Assembly (NCBI GenBank): GCA_019747795.1
Contig: JAIEQK010000095.1
Coordinates: 1-51,387, forward strand
Length of the DNA stretch: 51,387 nucleotides
Source: Gammaproteobacteria bacterium
GTDB lineage: Bacteria > Pseudomonadota > Gammaproteobacteria > Ga0077536
Reading direction: 5' to 3'
Shown piece by piece: positions 10,979-25,945 of the stretch (position 1 is the stretch's first letter; every line of letters starts with the position of its first letter). The notes below the pieces were generated by a model. That model was not told the origin of the DNA, did no database searches, and worked only from the letters and a program-made list of their open reading frames with translations. The position numbers and the translations under genes were made by a program.

Positions 10979-13453
10979 TCAGCCGGTGGTGCGGTCCGTG
11001 CCCCCGGCGACTCCGTTGCCCGGCGCGCTCCGCGCCGGCGCGACGCTCCCCACCGGGCGTACGCTCGGTCGCGGCTCCCGCTGCCCGAGCAGGCTTTCGT
11101 CGAAGCGCGTCACGCGACGCGGACCGTCGAACAGCTGCCCCTTCGCGAACTCGATGCCCATCTTGGCCAGCGCTTCGCGCACCGAGCGGCTGTCGGCGTG
11201 CTCCGCCACGGTCTTGAGGCCCAGCGCGCGCGCCACCCGCGACAGGCCCAGCACCACCTCGTAGTCCACCGAACTCGACAGCAGGTTGGCGACGAAGCTG
11301 CCGCGAATGCCGAGGTAGTCGACCTGCAGGGTCTTCAATACGTCGATGGCGCCGCCGCCGAAGCCGAGATCGCCGACCAGGAACTGGCAGCCGTCCTGCT
11401 TCAGCGTCGTGACGAAGTAGCGCACCACGTCGGCATGGCTGGCGAGGCTCGCCTCCGGCAGGCTGAAGCCGAGCCGCGGCGCGATGCGCGGGTGTTCGCG
11501 CACGCGACGTATGGCGTATTCCAGCAGGCGCTCGTCGGCGACCGAGGAGGCGCCGAGCGGCACGAGCGCGAGGCACATGTCCGACAGCGCGGGATGATCC
11601 GACACCAGCGCCTCGACCGCCGCGCCGATCAGCCAGCGATCGATGTCGCTGCCGAGCTGGTAGCGCGCGGCGAGATCCAGCATCTCGGGACGCGGGATGG
11701 GCTGGTCGTCGCTGGTGCGCACGCCGGCGGTGAGTTCACAGCGATCGCTCGGCAGGCTGGGCATGGTGGCGCACAGCGGCTGGTAGAACAGATCCAGGCG
11801 GCCGGCGTGCAGCGCCGACTGGATCTCGCCCACCCGTCGCAGCTCGCGCGCCTGGCTGTCTTCCTCCGGCGCGGTGGCCTCGAACAGCTGCACGCGGTTG
11901 CGTCCGAAGTGCTTGGCGCTGTAGCAGGCGGCGTCGGCCGCGCGCAGCAGGTGGGCGGTGTCCCGCACCTCCGGGCCGATCTCCACCACGCCGACACTGA
12001 TCGACACCGGCAGTTCGATGGACTGCCAGGTGAAGTCATGACTCTCCACGCCGGCGCGCACGCTCTCGCCGATGCCACGCGCGCGCTCGGCGTCGCAGCT
12101 GTAGAGCAGCGCGCAGAACTCATCGCCGCCGATGCGCGCCAGGGTGTCGGCGCCGCGAATGCGCGCGCGCATCACGTCCACCAGGCTGCGCAGCGCATGG
12201 TCGCCCGCGGCATGACCATAGGTGTCGTTGATGAACTTGAACTTGTCGATGTCGATGTAGAGCAGGGTGTGGGTCTTGCGCGGCGTGTCGCCCGCCTGGC
12301 GCAGCAGTTTGCCCAGGCGCCGCTCGAACTCCGCGCGGTTGATGCAGCCGGTCAGCGTGTCGTGGGTCGCGCGCCAGGCGATGGACTCGACGCGCTGGCG
12401 TCGCGCGGTGACGTCGCGCAGCAGCACCGACACGCCGACGAAGCTGCCGTCGGCGTCGGTCAGCGGCGTGAAGCTGTAGTCGACGCCGAAGGCCACGCCA
12501 TCCTGGCGAATGAGCTGGGCCTGGTCGTGCATGCGCTGGCTGGTGAGAGTGAGGCGCGCCTCGGCGAGGATCGCCTCGGTGCGGTTGTGCGGTTCCCGTC
12601 CGTAGACGATGCGCAGGCAGTCGCCGAGGGGCTTGCCGACCAGTTCAGCGGCGGTCGCGCCGAGCAGCTGCTCGGCGAAGGGATTGACGTAGTCCACGCG
12701 GCCGGCGGCGTCGGTGCCGAGCAGCGCATCGCCCAGGTGGTGCAGCAGCCGGTACTGGCGCGCGTCGCGCGCCAGGCGCTGGTCGAGTTCGTCCAGCGCG
12801 CGCTCCGCGCCGGCCAGCGACAGGGGTGCGCTCTGGGCGTGCTCGCCGGTCACCGCCAGCAGGCGACGCACCACCGAGGCGAGCGCCTCGTGGCGACGGA
12901 AATAGACCCCGGCGACGAGCGCGAGGGTGGCCATGGTGAGCGCGATCCACGGCACGATGCCGGGATGGCGGCCGTCGTGCAGGACGCCGCCGGTCGCCAG
13001 CAGGCCAAGGGCGGCGAGGAAACAGACGTAGGCTTGCGGACGTTCGCCGAGCACCGGGATGGCGACCAGCGCCACGCCCAGGGCCGCGCTCAACAGGGTC
13101 GCCAGCGCCATGCCGTCGGCGCCAGGCACGAAGAGCGCGAGTCCCGAACCCCAGGCCAGGCCCAGGACGGCGGCGAGGCCAACCTCGAGCGAAGCCTGGC
13201 CGCCTGCGCGCGGCCCGGCCTTCGACCACTGCTCGAGCACCACCGTCAGCAGCACGAAGCCGCTCCAGGCACCGAGCAGGGCCGGCGCGGTGCCCTCCCA
13301 CAGCGCCGCGGCGACACCGGCCAGGGCGGCCACGTGCGTCACCAGCCAGACGCGGCCGAGCGTCGCCTGCACCGTCGCGGGCGCGGCGCCGGGCCTGATT
13401 ACGGCATGGCGCTCGGGAGCGGGCGCCTGCTGCGCGCCAGGGTCGTCGTTCAT
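10979..13453 (-). CDS. membrane PAS-GGDEF protein with degenerate EAL domain (probable diguanylate cyclase)
   Basis: The 824-residue protein has four parts. First, about six hydrophobic segments (roughly residues 30-190) form a membrane sensor module. A PAS domain follows (GDALLGTDAAGRVDYVNPFAEQLLG). The GGDEF domain has an intact active site, IGGDEF, and the inhibitory RxxD site (RGAD) five residues before it. The C-terminal domain is EAL-like but lacks the catalytic set: the EAL position reads ELTAG, ITES is LPEAS, DDFGTG is GDLGFGGG, and the LKID lysine is missing. It should make c-di-GMP and probably only bind, not cleave, it. I chose the ATG at 13453, with GAGGA upstream, over a GTG at 13471. 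Two CRP-like sites precede it. It converges with the AOR gene. Confidence 0.9.
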   Translation of the reverse strand: MNDDPGAQQAPAPERHAVIRPGAAPATVQATLGRVWLVTHVAALAGVAAALWEGTAPALLGAWSGFVLLTVVLEQWSKAGPRAGGQASLEVGLAAVLGLAWGSGLALFVPGADGMALATLLSAALGVALVAIPVLGERPQAYVCFLAALGLLATGGVLHDGRHPGIVPWIALTMATLALVAGVYFRRHEALASVVRRLLAVTGEHAQSAPLSLAGAERALDELDQRLARDARQYRLLHHLGDALLGTDAAGRVDYVNPFAEQLLGATAAELVGKPLGDCLRIVYGREPHNRTEAILAEARLTLTSQRMHDQAQLIRQDGVAFGVDYSFTPLTDADGSFVGVSVLLRDVTARRQRVESIAWRATHDTLTGCINRAEFERRLGKLLRQAGDTPRKTHTLLYIDIDKFKFINDTYGHAAGDHALRSLVDVMRARIRGADTLARIGGDEFCALLYSCDAERARGIGESVRAGVESHDFTWQSIELPVSISVGVVEIGPEVRDTAHLLRAADAACYSAKHFGRNRVQLFEATAPEEDSQARELRRVGEIQSALHAGRLDLFYQPLCATMPSLPSDRCELTAGVRTSDDQPIPRPEMLDLAARYQLGSDIDRWLIGAAVEALVSDHPALSDMCLALVPLGASSVADERLLEYAIRRVREHPRIAPRLGFSLPEASLASHADVVRYFVTTLKQDGCQFLVGDLGFGGGAIDVLKTLQVDYLGIRGSFVANLLSSSVDYEVVLGLSRVARALGLKTVAEHADSRSVREALAKMGIEFAKGQLFDGPRRVTRFDESLLGQREPRPSVRPVGSVAPARSAPGNGVAGGTDRTTG

Positions 13454-13501
13454 CTCGGTCCTCACGGACACCGCCGGACCCGCGCGCGAGGTGCCGCGGG
13501 G

Positions 13502-13583
13502 CTTTGTAAATTATTGTGTCGGCGGTGGGCGGCGCAGTGACTGTGGTCACAGGCGCGCCCGTGAGGTGCGTGATCGCGGTCAC
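13502..13583 (-). promoter_or_regulatory. promoter of the GGDEF gene with two CRP-like GTGA-N6-TCAC sites
   Basis: On the minus strand, AATAAT (13515 to 13510) is a good -10 with no good -35. Two GTGA-N6-TCAC palindromes lie upstream, at 13537-13550 and 13570-13583, with centres exactly 33 bp apart (about three helical turns). If transcription starts near 13502, the sites centre near -41.5 and -74.5, the standard class II and upstream CRP positions. This predicts activation by a CRP/Clp-family protein. A leader of about 50 nt precedes the ATG at 13453. The 184-bp gap between this gene and argG holds nothing else that I see. Confidence 0.55.
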
Positions 13584-14942: not shown

Positions 14943-16643
14943 TCAACGCCAGCGCACCTGGCCGTGGGCCTCGTCCAAGAAAAGGCGCGGGCAGCGCGCC
15001 AGCACCGCGCGCAGGTCGGCCTCGGCCAGGCCGAAGTCCGGCGCGAGCGCGGCCGCGCAGGCGGTCCAGTCGCCGACCAGGCCGGCAGCGTCGCGCGTGC
15101 CGTGCAGGACGAGGTACTCCAACACCGCGCTGCCGACGCGCGCCGCCTCGAGTTCGCGCCGGGTACGCGCCTGCAGGGCATCCAGTTCGCCGAAGCGCGT
15201 GGCGAGCGCGGTGACGAAGGACGCCATCCAGCCGTCCATGCCGAGTTCCTGCTCGAGCGACTCGCGCGTCACGACGATGACCGTGGCGGCGGTGCTCGCG
15301 CGCACGCTCGCGGTGCGCGGCTGGCTCGCGAACACCGCGGTCTCGCCGAACACCTCGCCGGGTCCCAGCCGGCGCAGGGTGACCTCCTGGCTGCCCTCGC
15401 GACGGAACACCTCGCACAGGCCCTCGGTGACGATGAAGGCCTCGTCGCCGGCTTCGCCCTCGCGCACGATGAGCTGGCCGGCGGCGAAGGAACGGGTCGC
15501 GAACCACGCGCCGGCGCGCAGGAAGCCCTCCAGGTCGGCCTTCAGTTCCTGCACCGACTGGTGACGCTGCGCCGGATCTGCCGCCAGCGCCTTCATCGCG
15601 ATGCGCGCGAGGCCGGGCGGGATGTCGCGGCGCGGCTGCACCTGGTCGGGCGGCAGGATGTGGCTCTGCAGGGCGGCGTCGATGCGCTCGTCGGTGTCGC
15701 GCCCGACATGCGGCGCCTGGCCACAGAGGACCTGGTACAGCGTGCCGCCCAGCGCGAACACGTCGGTGCGCTGGTCGATGAGATCGAGCCGGCCGCGCGC
15801 CTGCTCCGGCGCCATGTAGCCGATGGTGCCGACGATCGCGCCCTCGTCATCGCCGACCACGCCCGCGCCGCGCGCGATCTGCACCGCCTCGCCGCCCTCG
15901 GACGGCCGGCTGCCCGCCAGCAGTCGCGCGATGCCCCAGTCCATCACGTACACCTGGCCGAAAGAGCCGACCATGATGTTGTCCGGCTTCAGATCGCGAT
16001 GGATGACGCCGCGCGCGTGGGCGAAGCTCACCGCGTCGCAGACCTTGATCAGGATCTCGATCAGGCTGCGCAGCGCGCCGCGGCTGCGATCGTTGGCGCA
16101 CAGGAGCGCGGTCAGGGTCATGCCCTGCACCTGCTTCATGGTGAAGTAGTAGCGGCCTTCGGCGTCGACGCCGAGATCGTGCACCGGCACGATGTTGGGA
16201 TGATCGAGCTGCGCGGTGATCTGCGCCTCTTCGACGAAGCGCAGCGCGGCGCGCGGCCGCGACACGCCGACCCGCTCCAGCACCTTGGTCGCGACGCTGC
16301 GCAACAGCAGGCGATCGCGCGCGGCGTGCACCGCGCCGAAGCCGCCGCGACCGAGCAGGGCGAGGGTCTCGAGGCGTTTCTCCGGCGTGAAGAAGCCGGG
16401 TTGCAGCGCCGGCGCGGCGGCCACCGCGCCGGCCGAGGGGCGCGCCGCCAGTTCTTCCAGGGTGCGGGTATCGTTCGCCGCGACGGTCGGCGGCGACTGC
16501 ATCACAAGGGTCGCATCCCCTTCGGTGCTGGCCGAGGTCGAGAGCATCCAAAGGGGAATGTGACAGGTGACGGTGGCGTCGGCGGCTTCGGTCGCGTCGT
16601 CCGGCGGTCCGCCGGGCGGTGGCTCGCGTTCCTCCATGATCAT
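14943..16643 (-). CDS. Hanks-type Ser/Thr protein kinase with C-terminal cyclic-nucleotide-binding domain
   Basis: The 566-residue protein has a proline-rich N-terminal tail. The kinase domain spans about residues 90-380: a glycine loop GRGGFGAV (98-105), the ATP lysine in VATKVL (Lys120), Glu139, the catalytic loop HRDLKPDN (Asp217), DWG in place of DFG (Asp235) and YMAPEQARG. No transmembrane segment is seen, so it is probably cytosolic. The C terminus (about 405-520) is a cNMP-binding domain with a complete phosphate-binding cassette, PGEVFGETAVFASQPRTASV, including the Glu and Arg that hold the nucleotide. It may therefore be switched by cAMP or cGMP. GGAGG lies upstream of two in-frame ATGs (16643 and 16637), and either could start the protein. 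A TATGAT -10-like element lies at 16670-16675. Confidence 0.9.
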   Translation of the reverse strand: MIMEEREPPPGGPPDDATEAADATVTCHIPLWMLSTSASTEGDATLVMQSPPTVAANDTRTLEELAARPSAGAVAAAPALQPGFFTPEKRLETLALLGRGGFGAVHAARDRLLLRSVATKVLERVGVSRPRAALRFVEEAQITAQLDHPNIVPVHDLGVDAEGRYYFTMKQVQGMTLTALLCANDRSRGALRSLIEILIKVCDAVSFAHARGVIHRDLKPDNIMVGSFGQVYVMDWGIARLLAGSRPSEGGEAVQIARGAGVVGDDEGAIVGTIGYMAPEQARGRLDLIDQRTDVFALGGTLYQVLCGQAPHVGRDTDERIDAALQSHILPPDQVQPRRDIPPGLARIAMKALAADPAQRHQSVQELKADLEGFLRAGAWFATRSFAAGQLIVREGEAGDEAFIVTEGLCEVFRREGSQEVTLRRLGPGEVFGETAVFASQPRTASVRASTAATVIVVTRESLEQELGMDGWMASFVTALATRFGELDALQARTRRELEAARVGSAVLEYLVLHGTRDAAGLVGDWTACAAALAPDFGLAEADLRAVLARCPRLFLDEAHGQVRWR

Positions 16644-18759: not shown

Positions 18760-19536
18760 TCAGGCGCGGAGCGCGCGCTCGAAGGCGGCGAGGAAGGCGG
18801 CCGGCGCCTCGGCGTGGGGCCAGTGGCCGCCGCCGATCACGGTTTCGATGACGTGGCGCGGAAACCAGCGCGCGATGAGCGGCAGGTGCTCGTCCGTGAC
18901 GCGGTCCGAGAGCTCGCCGCGGATGAACCAGGTGGGACGGTCGTAATGCGCGTCGGCCGGCGCCGGCAGCGGGCCCAGGATGTTGGCCATGTCGCGTTCC
19001 AGCGTCGCGAGGTTCAGGCGCCAGCGCGGTTGGCCCTGTTCGAACAGCAGGTTCTGCAGCACGAACAGCCGCACCGGCGTATCGGGAATGGCCGACGCCA
19101 GGGCGCGGTCCGCGTCCGCGCGGCGGCGGATGGTGGCGAGGTCGACCGCCTTCAGCGCGGTGATGACCTCGTTGAAGCGATCGGGGTAGGTGACCGGCGC
19201 GATGTCCACCGCCACCACGCGCTCGAGCCCCGTGGGGTCGGTCAGCGCCATGGTCATCGCCGCCTTGCCGCCCATGCTGTGCCCCACGAGCGAGAAGCTG
19301 GCGAGTCCGAGCGTGCTCACCAGCCGACGCACGTCGGCCACCATGGCCGTGTAGTCCATGGTCGCGGTGTGCGGTGACGCACCGTGGTTGCGCAGGTCGA
19401 CCAGGTGGAAGCGGTAGCGATCGCCAAGCGCGCGCGCCACCGTGATCCAGTTGCGCCCCGCGCCGAACAGGCCGTGCAGCACCACCACAGGTGGGCCGTC
19501 GCCGACCGATTCGTAGTGCAGATCGACCGCCGTCAT
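18760..19536 (-). CDS. alpha/beta hydrolase (YbfF-like esterase family)
   Basis: The 258-residue alpha/beta hydrolase has an oxyanion-hole stretch VVVLHGLFGAGRNW, the family phrase VDLRNHGASPH, a nucleophile elbow GHSMGG (Ser87), an acid candidate Asp211 (LSDRVTDEH), and a base His238 in GGGHWPHAEAP. RNHG-S-PH and GHSMGG place it near the YbfF/AbhD11 esterases, which hydrolyse short acyl esters and acyl-CoA in the cytosol. The ATG at 19536 overlaps the stop of the NUDIX gene (ATGA), so the pair is translationally coupled. The longer open frame upstream is a shadow of the NUDIX gene. Confidence 0.88.
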   Translation of the reverse strand: MTAVDLHYESVGDGPPVVVLHGLFGAGRNWITVARALGDRYRFHLVDLRNHGASPHTATMDYTAMVADVRRLVSTLGLASFSLVGHSMGGKAAMTMALTDPTGLERVVAVDIAPVTYPDRFNEVITALKAVDLATIRRRADADRALASAIPDTPVRLFVLQNLLFEQGQPRWRLNLATLERDMANILGPLPAPADAHYDRPTWFIRGELSDRVTDEHLPLIARWFPRHVIETVIGGGHWPHAEAPAAFLAAFERALRA

Positions 19537-20003
19537 GGCGCGCCCTCGCGCAGCGCGGGCGGGATGCGCGCCGGGTTCAGCCAGCGCTGCGGCCACAGGC
19601 CGAGGAGCGCGATGTCCTCGTCGATGCCGTCCATCACCGGGTAGTCGCGAAAGCGCTCCGGCGCGACCCAGGCGAAGGCGCTGTGCTCGTGGTTCAACCG
19701 CACTTCGCCCGCCAGCCAGTGGCGCTGAAAGAGGTGGATCTCGTAGATCCCGCCGTAGTAGGTGTCGCGCAGCGGACCGAGATAGCGCACCAGGCGGGTC
19801 TCGTGTCCGGGCCCGATCTCTTCCTCCATTTCGCGCAGCGCCGCCTCGGCAGGCGTCTCGCCGGCCTCGATCTTGCCGGCCGGCAGGCCCCACAGGCCGG
19901 GGCCGAGGCGCGCGGTCTCGACCCGCCGGATGAGCAGCAGCTCACCGGCCGGATTCAAGAGCAGGTTGAGCGCGTAACGCGCGGCAGGCGGCTGGGCGGA
20001 CAT
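19533..20003 (-). CDS. NUDIX hydrolase
   Basis: The 156-residue protein carries a complete Nudix box, starting GKIEAGETPAEAALREMEEE, whose REMEEE glutamates bind the divalent metals. The preceding GLWGLPAGK is the usual lead-in to the box. Such enzymes hydrolyse nucleoside diphosphates linked to another moiety, or nucleotide sugars and oxidised dNTPs; the substrate cannot be read from sequence. It is the first gene of a two-gene unit with the downstream esterase. A TATACT -10-like sequence lies at 20029-20034 on the minus strand, 26 bp before the start. No -35 of good quality was found. Confidence 0.9.
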   Translation of the reverse strand: MSAQPPAARYALNLLLNPAGELLLIRRVETARLGPGLWGLPAGKIEAGETPAEAALREMEEEIGPGHETRLVRYLGPLRDTYYGGIYEIHLFQRHWLAGEVRLNHEHSAFAWVAPERFRDYPVMDGIDEDIALLGLWPQRWLNPARIPPALREGAP

Positions 20004-20185
20004 TCTCTAACCCCGATGGCGAGGCGCCAGTATAGCCAGCAGGCGCGCGGCGGAGACGCGCGCGGCGGCTCAAGTTGCGCGGCCGTCGGCCGCTATCGAA
20101 GGCGAACCTGGAGGGGGACGCGTGCCACGCGAGTCCGCAAAGGCTCACCTACCCTCACCTGCGACCACAGATGCGCCACCCAGCC

Positions 20186-21247
20186 ATGACCCGACGCCTG
20201 CTTGTTCCGATCCTCACCGCGCTGCTGATGCTGATGACGGTCAGCGCCGCGCCGGCCGCCGAGGGTGGGCACGACGAACTCGTGATCCTCAACTGGGCGG
20301 ACTATGTCGACCCGGATCTGATTGCCGCCTTCGAGCGCCAGCACAAGGTCAACGTGCGCGTGGTCAACTACGAGGACGACGACAACCGCGACCAGCTGCT
20401 GCTCGCGACCAACGGCAGCGGCTATGACCTGGTGGTGGTGAACGAAACGCGTATCAGCGTCTACCGTGCGCATGGCTGGATCGCGCCGCTCACCGCGGCG
20501 GAAGTACCGAACCTGAGACACGTGGACGCCAAGTGGCTGGACAAGGCACCCGCCGCCAAGGGTCATGCCGCGCCCTACTTCTGGGGCACCGTCGGTATCG
20601 CCTACCGCAGTGACCTGGTGAAGAAGCCGCCCCAGGGCTGGACCGACCTGTTGCAGCCTACCGACGACCTCAAGGGCAAGGTGGCGATGCTGAGTTCGTC
20701 GCGGGAGATCCTCGGCATGGCACTGAAAGCCACCGGCCACTCGGTGAACAGTGCCGATCACCACGATATCGACGAGGCCATGCGCCTGCTGCTGGCACAG
20801 AAGCCCTATGTGCGCGCCTACCAGCAGTCCCTGTTGAACGAACGCTCCGAACTCGTCACCGGCGACGTGCAGATGCGCATGACCTTCAACGGTGATGCGC
20901 TGACGCTCAAGCGCTTCAACCCCAACATCGAATACGTGGTGCCGGCCGAGGGTACCGGGCTGTGGGTCGACTACATCACGGTCATGGCCACTGCCGCCAA
21001 CGCCAAGCTGGCCTACGCCTTCGTCGATTTCCTCAACCAGCCGGCCAATGCCGCGCAGAACGCGCAGTACGCGAGTTTCGCCACCACCAATGCTGCGGCG
21101 GAGAAGCTCCTGCCGGCGGCGTTCCGCGCCAATCCGGCGGTCTACCCCGACGCCAAGACCTTGGCCAACTCCGAGATGTTTGCGGCCATGCCGCCGCGTG
21201 TCCTGAGTTATCGCAACACCAAGTTCTCGCAGCTGTTGCAGAACTGA
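20186..21247 (+). CDS. PotD/PotF-like periplasmic polyamine-binding protein (NspS-like sensor subunit)
   Basis: The 353-residue protein has a Sec signal peptide (MTRRLLVPILTALLMLMTVS, ending APAA). It then has the extracellular solute-binding fold of the spermidine/putrescine group: LVILNWADYVDPDLIAAFE, NGSGYDLVVVNE, FWGTVGIAYR, and an aspartate-rich C-terminal lobe. No permease or ATPase genes are adjacent. Instead a GGDEF-EAL receptor starts 22 bp downstream on the same strand. This is the arrangement of NspS-MbaA in Vibrio cholerae, where the binding protein reports polyamine levels to a membrane c-di-GMP enzyme. The role here is inferred from that context. ATG 20186 is preferred over 20171 because it gives a standard signal peptide; neither has a strong ribosome-binding site. 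Confidence 0.85.
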   Translation: MTRRLLVPILTALLMLMTVSAAPAAEGGHDELVILNWADYVDPDLIAAFERQHKVNVRVVNYEDDDNRDQLLLATNGSGYDLVVVNETRISVYRAHGWIAPLTAAEVPNLRHVDAKWLDKAPAAKGHAAPYFWGTVGIAYRSDLVKKPPQGWTDLLQPTDDLKGKVAMLSSSREILGMALKATGHSVNSADHHDIDEAMRLLLAQKPYVRAYQQSLLNERSELVTGDVQMRMTFNGDALTLKRFNPNIEYVVPAEGTGLWVDYITVMATAANAKLAYAFVDFLNQPANAAQNAQYASFATTNAAAEKLLPAAFRANPAVYPDAKTLANSEMFAAMPPRVLSYRNTKFSQLLQN

Positions 21248-21269
21248 GCGCACGATCCGCGCCGCGGCC

Positions 21270-23723
21270 ATGAAGCTCAAGGCCAAGATTCCCGCGCTGG
21301 TGCTGCCGCTGGTGGTCGCGCCGCTGCTGGTGCTGAGCGTGCTGGCCTTCACCCGCATCTACGACGCCATGCGCGACCAGTTGGAGGACGAGACCGCGCG
21401 CGCGCTGCGCAACGCCATGTCGCACATGCAGCAGGCGGTATCCGCCGCGCGCGGCAACCTGCAGCTGTTCGAAAACAACCTGGTGCTGACCAAGTACGCC
21501 ACGACCAGCGAGGAGGACCGCTACACCCTGTTGCAGCCCGCGCTACTGGACATCTTTCGTGCCTGCCAGGCGGCGTTCCCCGATTATTTCGAGATCCGTT
21601 TTCTCACGCCGGAGGGCTACGAGGACGCCCGCCAGGCGCGCTTCGATATCGGCAACAGCAGCGACGAGGAAGGCGGCAGCGAGTGGTTCAAGCGCCTCGG
21701 CGCCCATGCCGAGGGCGCCTACGTCACCACCTACATGCACCCCGACACCGGCAGGCCGGCCCTGTTCGTCGGCACCGCGGTCAGGCGGCGCGACATGACG
21801 GTGGACACCGGCGCGGCTGAGCCGGTCCTGCGCGGCTACCTCGGCATCACGGTCGACCTGGTGGATTTCGCGCGCCACATCGCCGAGGCCCACGTCGGCG
21901 AGTCTGGCTACCTGTTCGCCACGGACGCCAAGGGCAAGATTCTCTTCGGCCGCCAGGATCTGCGCTTGCCGGCCGACTTCGTCGCGCGCGTCGACGCCGC
22001 GCTCAAGGACGACAGCGACGAGATCACCATCGACATCGGTCAGGAGCCCACCGGCCTGCACATGCGGCGGCTGAACGATGGACTGCTGCTGTTCGCGTCC
22101 CATTCCCATGCCGACACGCGCAACCTGATCTTCCAGGCGGGTGCGGTGGTCGTGCTCGGCGTGCTGCTCATCCTGGTCGTGACGGGCGGCGGTCTGGTCG
22201 CGGTGCTGGCGCGTCACATCGTGCAGCCGGTGATCAGGCTGCGCGCGGTCGCCGCCGAGATCGGCAGCGGCAACTGGGACGTGGAGAGCGGCATCGCCAC
22301 CAACGACGAGATCGGCGATCTCGCGCGCTCGGTGGAGGACATGGCGCGCAATCTCAAGGCGGCCGACGATCGCGTGCGCTTCCTCGCCTACCACGACAAC
22401 CTCACCGGCCTGCCGAACCGCGCGATGTTCCGCGACTACCTGACCCGCGCGCTGTCCCAGGCCGAACGCGCCGGCCAGAAGCTCGGCGTGCTGTTCATCG
22501 ACATCGACGGCTTCAAGCGCATCAACGATACCCTCGGCCACCAGACTGGCGACCTGCTCTTGAAGGAGATCGCGCGCCGCCTGACGGCGCGGCTGCGCGA
22601 GGAAGACATGGTCACCCATTGCGAGGCGAGCAGCGCCGACCACGACGGTCTCCTGGCGCGCCTCGGCGGCGACGAGTTCATCGTTCTGCTGACCGGCGTG
22701 CACGATCCCCACGGGCCCGGCACCGTCGCACGCCGCTTCATCAAGACGCTCGGCGAGACCATCACGCTGAACGGCCAGGACTGCCACATCGGCGCCAGCA
22801 TCGGCATCGCGCTGTATCCGGACGACGGTGCGGACGCCGGTGAGCTGATGCGCAATGCCGACATCGCCATGTACCACGCCAAGAACCTCGGCAAGAACGC
22901 CTACCAGTACTTCCAGTCGTCGATGAACGCGGCGGTGCTGGAGCGCGCGGCGCTGGAGGCCAAGCTGCGCAAGGCCATCGCCGATCACCACCTGTCGCTG
23001 CACTACCAGCCGCAGGTCGATCCGCGCAGCGGCGAGATAGTCGGCCTCGAGGCGCTCCTGCGCTGGACAGATCCGGAGACCGGACCAATCTCGCCGGGCG
23101 CCTTCATCCCGCTCGCCGAGGAGACCGGTCTCATCCTGCAGATCGGCGAATGGGTGATCGACGAGGCCTGTCGCCAGGCGCGGGCCTGGGACACGCGCGG
23201 CGTGCGCCCGGTGCCCATCTCGGTCAATGTCTCGGGCGTGCAGTTCGAGCGTCAGGACGTGGCCGAGGTGGTGCGCGCCGCGGTGCAACGGCACCACCTG
23301 CCGCCGGGGCGTCTCGAGATCGAGATCACCGAGTCGGCCATCATGCGCCACCCGGAGCGGGCGGTGGCGGCCTTGAACACCCTGCGCGAGTCCGGCGCCG
23401 GCGTCGCGCTCGACGACTTCGGCACCGGCTACTCCTCGCTCAGCTACCTGCGGCGCTTTCCCATCGACACGCTGAAGATCGATCGCAGCTTCATCATGGA
23501 GATCGATCAGAACCAGGAGGACGCGGAGATCGTCGCGGCGATCGTCGCCATGGCGCACACCCTCGGCCTGCAGGTGATCGTCGAGGGCGTGGAGACCGCC
23601 CCGCAGCTCGAGGTCATCGTCGCCAAGCAGTGCGACGTGGTGCAGGGCTTCGTATTCAGCCGGCCGCTGCCGGCGGCCGACGTGCCGGCGCGCCTCGCGG
23701 GGCCGCTCAAGCGCAGCGCCTGA
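21270..23723 (+). CDS. dCache-HAMP-GGDEF-EAL membrane receptor (MbaA-like)
   Basis: The 817-residue inner-membrane protein has an N-terminal membrane segment (about 7-28), a large periplasmic dCache-like sensor (30-280), a second membrane segment (285-312), a HAMP linker (about 313-365), GGDEF (370-555, GGDEF at 466-470) and EAL (560-805). The EAL domain keeps its catalytic set: LEALLRW (594-596), ITES and DDFGTGYSSL (715-724). It should hydrolyse c-di-GMP and may also make it. The GGDEF domain has about 14 extra residues (MVTHCEASSADHDG) between RxxD (443-446) and GGDEF. The upstream polyamine-binding protein is 22 bp away, so the two probably form a sensory pair. It converges with the next gene, leaving a 6-bp gap. 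Confidence 0.92.
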   Translation: MKLKAKIPALVLPLVVAPLLVLSVLAFTRIYDAMRDQLEDETARALRNAMSHMQQAVSAARGNLQLFENNLVLTKYATTSEEDRYTLLQPALLDIFRACQAAFPDYFEIRFLTPEGYEDARQARFDIGNSSDEEGGSEWFKRLGAHAEGAYVTTYMHPDTGRPALFVGTAVRRRDMTVDTGAAEPVLRGYLGITVDLVDFARHIAEAHVGESGYLFATDAKGKILFGRQDLRLPADFVARVDAALKDDSDEITIDIGQEPTGLHMRRLNDGLLLFASHSHADTRNLIFQAGAVVVLGVLLILVVTGGGLVAVLARHIVQPVIRLRAVAAEIGSGNWDVESGIATNDEIGDLARSVEDMARNLKAADDRVRFLAYHDNLTGLPNRAMFRDYLTRALSQAERAGQKLGVLFIDIDGFKRINDTLGHQTGDLLLKEIARRLTARLREEDMVTHCEASSADHDGLLARLGGDEFIVLLTGVHDPHGPGTVARRFIKTLGETITLNGQDCHIGASIGIALYPDDGADAGELMRNADIAMYHAKNLGKNAYQYFQSSMNAAVLERAALEAKLRKAIADHHLSLHYQPQVDPRSGEIVGLEALLRWTDPETGPISPGAFIPLAEETGLILQIGEWVIDEACRQARAWDTRGVRPVPISVNVSGVQFERQDVAEVVRAAVQRHHLPPGRLEIEITESAIMRHPERAVAALNTLRESGAGVALDDFGTGYSSLSYLRRFPIDTLKIDRSFIMEIDQNQEDAEIVAAIVAMAHTLGLQVIVEGVETAPQLEVIVAKQCDVVQGFVFSRPLPAADVPARLAGPLKRSA

Positions 23724-23729
23724 GCGCGC

Positions 23730-25787
23730 CTAGGCGAGCTTCGCCACTTCCACCCGCGCGTCGAAGGCATTGCTGCCGAAGCGCCGATCGGACAGACCGT
23801 CCGGGGTCAGCGCATTGGCCGAGGCGGCGCCGTCCAGGCTGTCCGCGGGCCACCAGCTGAAGGGCAGCGACACCACGCCGGCCGGCGTGTCGCCCGACAC
23901 CCGCGCAACCGCGCGCACTTCACCGAGACCATTCCACATGCGCACCGCGTCGCCGCTCGCGATGGCGCGGGCCGCGGCGTCCTGTGGATGGAGCTGGATC
24001 TCCGGCTGCTGCCCGCGCGTGCTCGCCTGGCGCGGATTGACGTACTCCGAGTTCAGGAAGTGCGCGACCTTGGCGGACACCAGGCGCAGCGGCCAGGCGC
24101 GGCGCGCGTCGTCGCTCTCGGCGATCGGCACGTAGCCGGGCAGCGGATCGAGCCCGGCCGCGGCGAGCGTCGGCGAATGGAACTCGCACTTGCCGCTCGG
24201 CGTGGTGAAGCCGCCGTCGGCGCGCGGTCGGTAGTCCTCGGGTAGCGCGAGGCGCATCCAGCCGCGGCGCGAGAGTTCGTCGAAATCGACGCCGCCGAGC
24301 CACGGGTGACCGGTAGCCAGCAGCTGGCGCACGCGCGTCTCGTCGTCGCTCGTGAGCCAGGGCTCGTCGAAGCCGAGCGCGCGCGACAGGCGACGGAACA
24401 GTTCGGTGTTGGCGATCGCCTCGCCGCGCGGCGCGATTGCGGGCGGATTGATCGCCACGTAGTCCTGCCCCCAGGCGCCCATCAGCTCCCAGTGTTCGAA
24501 CTGCATGGTGGCCGGCAGCAGGATGTCGGCGTAGCGCGCGGTGTCGGTCATGAAGTGCTCGTGCACCACGGTGAAGAGATCCTCGCGTTCGAGGCCGCGC
24601 CGCACGAGGTTCTGGTTCGGCATGGTCACCACCGGGTTCAGGTTGTAGACCATGAGCCAGGTGATGGGCGGGTCCATGCGTGGATCGGTCAGCACGCGGC
24701 CGAGCTGGGCCAGGTGCACCGTGCGCGCCGGCGCCGGATCATCGCCCGGACCGAACACCGCGCTGAAGTCGAGCGCCTCGACCACCAGGTGGCCGGTGAA
24801 GTGACACAGGCCGCCACCGCGTTCGCGCCACGCGCCGGTCAGCGCCGGCAGGCAGGCGACGGCGCGAAAACCCAGCGAGCCATTGGAATAGCGTTCCATG
24901 CCGACCATCAGCCGAATGGCCGCGGGACGCGTGGTGGCGTAGAGCCGCGCGAGACGCTCGATGGCCTCGACCTCGAGCCCCGTGATCTCGGCGACCCGCG
25001 CCGGCGGATATTCGGCGAGTCGCGCGGCGAGCGCGTCGAAGCCCTGGGTGTGGCGCGCGATATAGTCCGCGTCGTGCAGTTCGTCGCGCACGATGACGTG
25101 CATCATGCCGAGCGCGAGCGCCGCGTCGGTGCCCGGCTGCAGCTGCACGTGCCAGTCGGCGTGGGCGGCGGTGGGCGTGCGTACCGGGTCGACCACCACC
25201 ACCTGCGCGCCCTGGCGTCGCGCCTCGCGGATCGCGCCGCCCCACAGGTGCACGTTGGTCGCGGCGGTGTTGGTGCCCCACACGATGATGAGTCGGCTGT
25301 GGGCGAGATCCTCGGGGAGGATGCTGGCGCCGGGGCCGACGGTATTCGCGACCGCGGTGTAGGCGACGTTGCCGCAGATCTGACGATCGACGCCAGTGGC
25401 GCCGAGGCGCGCGAAGAAGGCGTCGCCGGCCCAGCGCTGGAGAATACCGATGGTGCCGGCGAAGTTGGCCGGCATGGCGGTGAGCGGCCCATGCCGCGCG
25501 ATGCCGTCCTGAAGCCGCGCCACCACTTCCGCGAGCGCCTCGTCCCAGCTCACGCGTTCGAAGCGGCCGCTGCCCTTGGGCCCGCTGCGCCGCATCGGGT
25601 ACAGCAGGCGCTCCGCGCTGTACACGCGCTCGGGGTAGCGCTTGAGCTTGGAGCACAGCGCGCCGCGCGTGTAGGGATGATCCGGCGTGCCGGCGAGTCC
25701 CACCGCGCGACCCGTGTCGTCCACCGTGACCTGCCAGGCGCAGGTGTCGGGACAGTCGTGGGGACAGGCACCGTGGACGGTTTTCAT
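23730..25787 (-). CDS. molybdopterin oxidoreductase (DMSO reductase family)
   Basis: The 685-residue catalytic-subunit-like protein has an N-terminal 4Fe-4S motif (Cys8, Cys12, Cys16, Cys45: CPHDCPDTC and GALC), then the molybdopterin domain (WGTNTAATNVHLWG, DPVRTPTAAHAD, MVGMERYSNG), and a C-terminal dinucleotide-binding domain (LHPQDAAARAIASGDAVRMWN). RQICGNVAYTA offers a Cys that could be the Mo ligand, but I cannot fix this by eye. There is no Tat signal, so it is probably cytosolic. No electron-transfer or membrane subunit is adjacent. The substrate is unknown. I chose ATG 25787 because the Cys motif follows directly; the frame stays open to 25883. It is divergent from an enoyl-CoA hydratase gene across a 158-bp gap without a clear promoter. 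Confidence 0.9.
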   Translation of the reverse strand: MKTVHGACPHDCPDTCAWQVTVDDTGRAVGLAGTPDHPYTRGALCSKLKRYPERVYSAERLLYPMRRSGPKGSGRFERVSWDEALAEVVARLQDGIARHGPLTAMPANFAGTIGILQRWAGDAFFARLGATGVDRQICGNVAYTAVANTVGPGASILPEDLAHSRLIIVWGTNTAATNVHLWGGAIREARRQGAQVVVVDPVRTPTAAHADWHVQLQPGTDAALALGMMHVIVRDELHDADYIARHTQGFDALAARLAEYPPARVAEITGLEVEAIERLARLYATTRPAAIRLMVGMERYSNGSLGFRAVACLPALTGAWRERGGGLCHFTGHLVVEALDFSAVFGPGDDPAPARTVHLAQLGRVLTDPRMDPPITWLMVYNLNPVVTMPNQNLVRRGLEREDLFTVVHEHFMTDTARYADILLPATMQFEHWELMGAWGQDYVAINPPAIAPRGEAIANTELFRRLSRALGFDEPWLTSDDETRVRQLLATGHPWLGGVDFDELSRRGWMRLALPEDYRPRADGGFTTPSGKCEFHSPTLAAAGLDPLPGYVPIAESDDARRAWPLRLVSAKVAHFLNSEYVNPRQASTRGQQPEIQLHPQDAAARAIASGDAVRMWNGLGEVRAVARVSGDTPAGVVSLPFSWWPADSLDGAASANALTPDGLSDRRFGSNAFDARVEVAKLA

Positions 25788-25945
25788 GGACGGGCTCCGC
25801 GCGAAAGGAAGGCGAATGATGCGCCAGGCGGGCGCGCCGACCAAGCGCCTGAACGCTTCCACGGCCGCGCGGATTGTGGTCAATTGGGCACAGGCCGGCG
25901 CGGCAAGCGCGCGGGCGGCGCTTCAGCCAGGGGAGTGATGTGGCG

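What the first reader, a model, noticed from the sequence alone, without database searches (positions are those of the whole stretch)
20186..23723. Polyamine-binding protein paired with dCache-GGDEF-EAL receptor (NspS/MbaA-like)
A PotD/F-like binding protein lacks permease and ATPase genes and lies 22 bp before a membrane receptor with HAMP, GGDEF and catalytic EAL. This mirrors V. cholerae NspS-MbaA, where polyamines set c-di-GMP levels. If right, this organism tunes biofilm or motility to external polyamines.
Basis: partly seen in the sequence, partly recalled or inferred. Interest (0 to 1): 0.55.

Follow-up and report, generated by a model that had tools for sequence, protein, structure and literature searches.

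The report
Polyamine-type sensor pair controlling c-di-GMP
Two neighbouring genes make an external amine-catching protein and a membrane receptor that probably turns that signal into a second messenger; it resembles a known cholera-bacterium system but belongs to a separate, little-described branch whose receptors carry several different output parts.

Summary
In detail: a PotD/PotF-like periplasmic binding protein (SBP, 20186-21247 +) lies 22 nt before a receptor (21270-23723 +) with two membrane helices, double-Cache sensor, HAMP, GGDEF and EAL. No ABC ATPase or permease was found in the window. 'NspS/MbaA-like' fits how it probably works, not strict membership. In a quick tree of 113 SBPs, 22 NspS-type rows form one side of a 100% branch; the window protein lies outside, among 60 window-type rows (91%); 31 transporter rows form a third side (100%). 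Of 61 window-type SBPs, 56 are followed by a receptor, 55 of these with a sensor matching the window's; a 57th has one divergently upstream. Outputs of the 56: 21 GGDEF-EAL, 29 histidine kinase, 4 SpoIIE-type phosphatase, 2 cut off. On the first tree the output changed repeatedly. The pocket keeps 6 of 8 published norspermidine-contact residues, but most of these are also common in transporters. Ligand, docking and direction of the c-di-GMP change were not tested. New variant of a known kind; modest interest.

The parts
20186..21247 (+). PotD/PotF-like periplasmic solute-binding protein (353 aa), no permease or ATPase partner found in the window
   Evidence: AlphaFold2 pLDDT 91.6; the first 30 PDB fold matches are spermidine/putrescine-type binding proteins
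20186..20260 (+). probable signal peptide (residues 1-25): hydrophobic core then APAA-EGG, no lipobox Cys; soluble periplasmic protein expected
   Evidence: inspection, no signal-peptide program was run; low pLDDT over residues 1-30
21248..21269 (+). 22-nt gap between stop and start; probable two-gene operon between minus-strand neighbours (NUDIX 19536-20003, molybdopterin oxidoreductase 23733-25883)
   Evidence: no sigma-70-like promoter match in 19900-23900
21270..23723 (+). membrane receptor, 817 aa: TM - double Cache - TM - HAMP - GGDEF - EAL
21276..21365 (+). TM helix 1 (about residues 3-32)
   Evidence: hydropathy; first part of helix 2-68
21366..22115 (+). periplasmic double-Cache sensor (about residues 33-282), with the stretch FPDYFEIRFLTPEGYEDAR that is recognisable in most rows of the sensor alignment
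22116..22223 (+). TM helix 2 (about residues 283-318)
   Evidence: hydropathy
22203..22358 (+). HAMP domain (residues 312-363)
   Evidence: E 8.2e-12
22386..22898 (+). GGDEF domain (residues 373-543), GGDEF at 466-470, no RxxD inhibitory site in the usual place
   Evidence: E 5.4e-47; (inspection)
22959..23666 (+). EAL domain (residues 564-799) with EALLR 594, SVNVSG 651, EIEITES 683, DDFGTG 715, TLKIDR 734, VEGVET 771, VVQGF 790
   Evidence: E 2.2e-76

Best explanation
The two genes form one sensory unit. The secreted SBP captures a polyamine-class cation in the periplasm and closes; one conformation of it docks on the double-Cache domain of the receptor; this moves TM2 and HAMP and shifts the cytoplasmic GGDEF-EAL pair between making and breaking c-di-GMP. 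By analogy with V. cholerae, the undocked receptor is expected to act mainly as a phosphodiesterase. Shown: the two genes, their domains, intact catalytic motifs, conservation of the pair, separation from transporter SBPs, a polyamine-type pocket. Inferred: ligand class (about 0.75), docking on this receptor (about 0.85), control of c-di-GMP (about 0.8), direction of the switch (about 0.5), biofilm or motility as the end result (about 0.5).
For: The pair is kept: 56 of 61 window-type SBPs are followed by a receptor, a 57th has sensor+kinase divergently upstream. 82 SBPs (60 window-type, 22 NspS-type) are split from 31 transporter SBPs by a 100% branch. Pocket: W37, D66, F132, D237, W260, D262 equal NspS W41, D70, F131, D236, W261, D263; among 60 window-type rows W37, D237 and D262 are kept in 60 and W260 in 59 (NspS residues from PMC9993111, section 17). 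The first 30 PDB fold matches are spermidine/putrescine-type. The own genome has a separate aminotransferase-SBP-ATPase cluster for uptake. V. cholerae NspS-MbaA works this way (PMC8079147, PMC8967002; passages).
Against: No ligand, docking or enzyme data. Contact residue D90 is N86 here; of three residues named as needed in V. cholerae and kept in S. meliloti (L89, S216, D263) the window has V85, L217, D262. W37, D237, W260 and D262 are also common in the 29 transporter rows (28, 19, 25 and 29), so they speak for the ligand class, not for signalling. SBP_bac_8 proteins predicted for spermidine/putrescine bound GABA or 5-aminovalerate in P. aeruginosa, and SBPs encoded near two sensor kinases were not seen to bind them (PMC11113362, abstract and introduction). 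The periplasmic domain matches MbaA's only weakly. L212 and L220 show no receptor in the stretches fetched.
Confidence: 0.6

Rival explanations
1. Same two-protein mechanism, but the SBP's ligand is another small cation or zwitterion (GABA, 5-aminovalerate, agmatine, a betaine), not a polyamine.
For: PotD-like SBPs predicted for polyamines bound GABA/5-aminovalerate (PMC11113362); window N86 differs from NspS D90, and the columns of D70 and D90 vary among the 60 window-type rows.
Against: W37, D237, W260 and D262 are near-invariant; the first 30 PDB fold matches are polyamine-type, a GABA-binding protein comes only at rank 35.
Confidence: 0.22
2. The SBP feeds an ABC permease encoded elsewhere, and the receptor senses directly through its Cache pocket; adjacency is incidental.
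For: The own genome has another SBP-ATPase cluster; Cache domains can bind amines directly (PMC10104139, passages).
Against: Adjacency in 56 of 61 through repeated output changes; split from transporter SBPs at 100%. Whether the Cache pocket keeps the published amine-binding residues was not tested residue by residue.
Confidence: 0.1
3. The receptor is only a phosphodiesterase and its GGDEF domain is regulatory (can be true together with the best explanation's first steps).
For: The purified cytoplasmic part of MbaA showed phosphodiesterase but not cyclase activity (PMC8079147, passage); regulatory GGDEF domains are known (CC3396, same passages).
Against: GGDEF motif is canonical here, while MbaA's SGDEF was inferred to make c-di-GMP in vivo.
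Confidence: 0.35

Closest known systems
NspS-MbaA of Vibrio cholerae and Sinorhizobium meliloti
   Same: PotD-like SBP gene directly upstream of a TM-periplasm-TM-GGDEF-EAL receptor; W/D pocket; no I-site. P0001 is 32% identical to the S. meliloti NspS over 353 positions.
   Different: SBP lies outside the NspS clade; genes 22 nt apart, where V. cholerae overlaps by 16 and S. meliloti by 3 bp; GGDEF instead of SGDEF; Pfam HAMP and a weak dCache match here, neither at E 0.01 for L123 and L062 (the paper reports a putative HAMP by Prosite); BLASTP with S. meliloti MbaA aligns significantly only from the second membrane helix on.
Receptor-SBP pairs with histidine kinases (introduction of PMC11113362)
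   Same: SBP gene next to its receptor gene; SBP_bac_8 is named among SBP families that activate receptors.
   Different: The window's output is GGDEF-EAL; 29 of the 56 related receptors are histidine kinases.
PotABCD / PotFGHI polyamine importers
   Same: SBP fold and much of the pocket.
   Different: No ATPase or permease found in the window; SBP separated from 31 transporter SBPs by a 100% branch.

Membership tests
NspS-MbaA | PotD/PotF-like SBP without transporter genes | tested here: met
NspS-MbaA | SBP gene immediately upstream of the receptor gene, same strand | tested here: met
   gap of 22 nt; the published survey used at most 20 bp (PMC9993111), so it would have left this pair out
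NspS-MbaA | receptor with TM-periplasmic-TM-GGDEF-EAL | tested here: met
NspS-MbaA | eight norspermidine-contact residues | tested here: inconclusive
   6 of 8 identical, Y233 to F234, D90 to N86
NspS-MbaA | SBP falls within the NspS clade | tested here: not met
   22 NspS-type rows are one side of a 100% branch without the window row; quick search, SH-aLRT support only; 19 of the 22 rows come from the Vibrio group
NspS-MbaA | periplasmic domain homologous to MbaA's | tested here: inconclusive
   hhalign with membrane helices: probability 98.7, E 1.6e-16, 301 columns; periplasmic part alone: probability 45, E 2e-4 (pairwise E-values)
NspS-MbaA | polyamine binding, docking, c-di-GMP response | not testable with these tools
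   needs bench work
PotABCD-type ABC importer | ATPase and permeases in the same operon | tested here: not met
   none found in the window by phmmer with one ATPase and two permease queries
dCache_1 (Pfam PF02743) | score over the curated cut-off | tested here: not met
   37 bits against 45; relatives L050 and L224 pass with 51.5 and 47.4
double-Cache fold | two stacked Cache modules after a long N-terminal helix | tested here: met

The most novel reading that the evidence does not exclude
The window pair belongs to a second, largely undescribed lineage of receptor-dedicated polyamine-type SBPs, alongside NspS-MbaA, in which one SBP plus double-Cache front end has been joined repeatedly to c-di-GMP enzymes, (hybrid) histidine kinases and SpoIIE-type phosphatases: a general plug-in amine sensor of Proteobacteria and neighbouring phyla.
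Probability: 0.5. Interest if true: 0.6.

Novelty: new variant of a known kind. Interest (0 to 1): 0.42.

Why it matters
For most GGDEF- and EAL-containing enzymes the ligand is unknown (said in PMC8079147, passage). A conserved SBP partner with a recognisable pocket gives a testable ligand class for this receptor and, by descent, for some thirty related kinases and phosphatases seen here (29 and 4). The own genome has a spermidine synthase match over the family cut-off and two Orn/Arg decarboxylase-family matches but no nspC match at E 0.001, so a self-made norspermidine signal as in Vibrio is less likely than spermidine or a foreign amine (inference).

Tried and rejected
Rejected: 'ordinary importer SBP' (no transporter genes found in the window, tree position); 'member of NspS-MbaA proper'; 'sensor unrelated to Cache'. 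The Mantel correlation of SBP and sensor distances (r 0.90 over 55 pairs; 0.73 for row pairs with different outputs) shows joint inheritance and is no proof of contact. The promoter/terminator scan gave nothing above chance. Literature searches (listings of at most 20 papers each, abstracts' beginnings) showed no paper on this SBP-sensor lineage with kinase or phosphatase outputs; this does not show that none exists. The 222 genomes of PMC9993111 could hold some members; that was not checked.

Rows and places left out. L236 (an SBP followed by a protein with a receiver-like start and a kinase match) left out of the NspS group. Of the 47 other lower-scoring SBPs, 30 have ABC or permease neighbours in view: L061 (220 aa) was dropped and 29 went into the first tree; the 17 without such neighbours in view were not used. 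The second SBP of L044 (cut by the contig end) is in neither tree. L018 and L063 (long branches) were left out of the second tree and 4 Gram-positive SBPs with ABC genes beside them were added. L077 was left out of the sensor profile. Of 31 places at E 1.2e-93 or better (window included), 29 were used; two at contig ends were not fetched. Of the places listed (104 of 196 genomes matched), 20 stretches picked by me were fetched, not a random draw. 19 of the 22 NspS-type rows are from the Vibrio group, so that clade is sampled narrowly. GGDEF, EAL, kinase, ATPase and permease labels come from phmmer with single sequences; Pfam was run on 9 receptors (7 window-type, 2 MbaA-type) and on the window's. 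The genome scan rests on two short peptide patterns, and searches scored at most 5 candidates a genome, so copies may have been missed.
Full report
What is there. The window holds two codirectional genes between minus-strand neighbours: a 353-aa SBP (20186-21247) and an 817-aa receptor (21270-23723), 22 nt apart. The SBP matches Pfam SBP_bac_8 (1e-32) and, below the equivalog cut-offs, NCBIfam PotD and PotF. Its best PDB sequence matches are PotD-type proteins of Streptococcus and Listeria (2.4e-54, 5.5e-54). Its AlphaFold2 model (pLDDT 91.6) has spermidine/putrescine-type binding proteins as its first 30 Foldseek matches. The receptor has HAMP, GGDEF and EAL over cut-off and a dCache_1 match under it; hydropathy shows two membrane segments, and the model of residues 1-340 (pLDDT 85.3) aligns to crystal structures of double-Cache domains at Z about 17, below two integrative chemoreceptor models at 18.8 and 18.0. 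The motifs of EAL and GGDEF are intact and there is no RxxD site before GGDEF. phmmer with one ATPase and two permease queries found no ABC gene in the window.

Genome context. The genome (5.94 Mb, 331 contigs, 99% complete) has three SBP_bac_8 matches. One, on contig 328, lies between an aminotransferase and an ABC ATPase, taken here as an uptake cluster (names by inspection), and is 28% identical to the window SBP over the aligned part. The third, on contig 234, is followed by a permease-like ORF (by inspection).

Relatives. Of 40 genomes searched (own included), five have a match at E 5.4e-90 or better and the rest are at 8e-41 or weaker: own, both others of the genus (63-64%), and two of the four searched of another genus of the family (42%). 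The receptor's sensor part is next door in all five. In that other genus the receptor is a hybrid histidine kinase (HisKA, HATPase, receiver; Pfam on one of the two). A scan of the named genome collection with two peptide patterns from the five-row alignment gave 22 loci: 21 at E 3e-79 or better and one weak match beside an ABC transporter. Of the 21, 20 have a receptor directly downstream (9 GGDEF-EAL, 9 histidine kinase, 2 cut by the contig end); in L044 the next gene is a second SBP and the contig ends. Record titles include Hahella, Motiliproteus, Bermanella, Candidatus Thiodiazotropha, Vibrio sp. HA2012, Magnetococcales and Desulfobulbaceae. In even draws of whole genomes, 8 of 369 of the class and 23 of 398 of the phylum have a match at E 1.2e-93 or better; the next best matches are at 4.2e-66 and 1.5e-68.

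Neighbour count. Pooling fetched places, 61 SBPs score 260 bits or more against the five-row profile. 56 are followed on the same strand, within 300 nt, by a receptor: 21 GGDEF-EAL, 29 histidine kinase, 4 with a SpoIIE-type phosphatase, 2 cut. The sensor matches the window's sensor by phmmer in 55 of the 56; L048 (GGDEF-EAL) is the exception. The SpoIIE label rests on Pfam for L207 and L218 (2.5e-20, 1.4e-19) and on sequence likeness for L209 and L211. Of the five others, two are the tandem SBPs of L044, L199 has a sensor-kinase divergently upstream, and L212 and L220 show none in the stretches fetched. Vibrio sp. HA2012 carries both kinds: a window-type pair (L054; SBP 42%, receptor 33% identical to the window's) and an NspS-clade pair (L077).

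NspS-MbaA yardsticks. S. meliloti NspS-MbaA was taken from a named record (L062; SBP and EAL protein overlapping by 4 nt, purD next); that it is smc00991/00992 rests on this layout and on its SGDEF and EAL motifs. Among Vibrio-group SBPs, L096, L102 and L110 match 10 of 10 published NspS residues when the best-fitting start codon is allowed. L102's receptor (L125) has EAL, so the ten residues alone do not single out V. cholerae; in L123 and L124, the receptors of L096 and L110, SGDEF starts at 424 and EVL at 553, which fits D426, E427 and E553 named in PMC8079147 (passages). The Mg-binding numbers quoted in PMC9993111 do not match L123.

Tree. With 111 SBPs, 29 transporter rows and 22 NspS rows each form one side of a 100% branch. 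With Gram-positive SBPs added and two long rows removed (113 rows), the window-type set (60, of which 4 have no receptor directly downstream in view) is one side at 91%, NspS (22) at 100%, and the 31 transporter rows at 100%. Whether window-type and NspS are sisters depends on the root, which was set at the midpoint. On the first tree the kinase label needs 8 changes (at least 5 forced by starred branches) and the window-type GGDEF-EAL label 7 (at least 4), so outputs were exchanged repeatedly. Both trees are quick searches with SH-aLRT only.

Sensor comparison. Profiles of 55 window-type and 21 MbaA-type N-termini align end to end with the membrane helices (probability 98.7), but the periplasmic part alone gives probability 45: common origin is plausible, not shown.

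Pocket. Against the eight contact residues modelled for V. cholerae NspS (PMC9993111, section 17 read), the window has six identical, F234 for Y233 and N86 for D90. Of L89, S216 and D263, needed in V. cholerae by mutagenesis, it has V85, L217 and D262. The own genome's contig-328 SBP has W, E, T, L, W, D, A, D at the eight positions. In the 60 window-type rows W37, D237 and D262 are invariant and W260 is missing once; these are also frequent in the 29 transporter rows (28, 19, 29 and 25), so they mark the ligand class. F131 separates better (37 of 60 window-type, 17 of 22 NspS, 1 of 29 transporter rows, but 3 of 4 Gram-positive transporter rows). The D70 and D90 columns vary.

Mechanism. I take the SBP as the ligand catcher and the double-Cache as its docking site; HAMP then biases GGDEF against EAL. 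This follows V. cholerae, where norspermidine-NspS favours synthesis and free MbaA favours breakdown (PMC8967002 and PMC8079147, passages). The organism probably makes spermidine (speE over cut-off) and shows no nspC match, so the signal may be spermidine or a foreign amine. Cautions: SBPs of this Pfam family predicted for polyamines have bound GABA or 5-aminovalerate, and nearness of SBP and kinase genes did not mean detectable interaction in two P. aeruginosa cases (PMC11113362, abstract and introduction).

Verdict. Observation confirmed; interpretation right in kind, too narrow in family. The addition is a separate lineage of SBP-receptor pairs with exchangeable outputs. I score interest 0.42.

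Noticed in passing
window 10982-13510, minus strand: A second GGDEF-EAL protein with a PAS domain; on reading the translation its EAL domain lacks the usual EALLR and DDFGTG motifs, so it may not cleave c-di-GMP.
   Followed up: partly
window 14946-16643, minus strand: Ser/Thr protein kinase fused to a cyclic-nucleotide-binding domain.
   Followed up: no
G001:C332:4622-4876 (L035): A second partial match to the window's sensor (residues 230-314, 52%) in a relative of the same genus.
   Followed up: no
L044:6904-8788: Two window-type SBPs in tandem in a record titled Marinobacter antarcticus, cut by the contig end.
   Followed up: partly
L115, L127, L129: Tandem SBPs before one MbaA-type receptor in Vibrio-group genomes.
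   Followed up: no
G042 (L078, L079, L080, L081): Hahella sp. HN01 has three window-type SBP-receptor pairs and a separate SBP next to a permease.
   Followed up: partly
L041, L052: MAG contigs titled Klebsiella pneumoniae that are the same places as G001 and G005, which the tool tells as same genus and same family as the window's genome; the titles are probably wrong.
   Followed up: no
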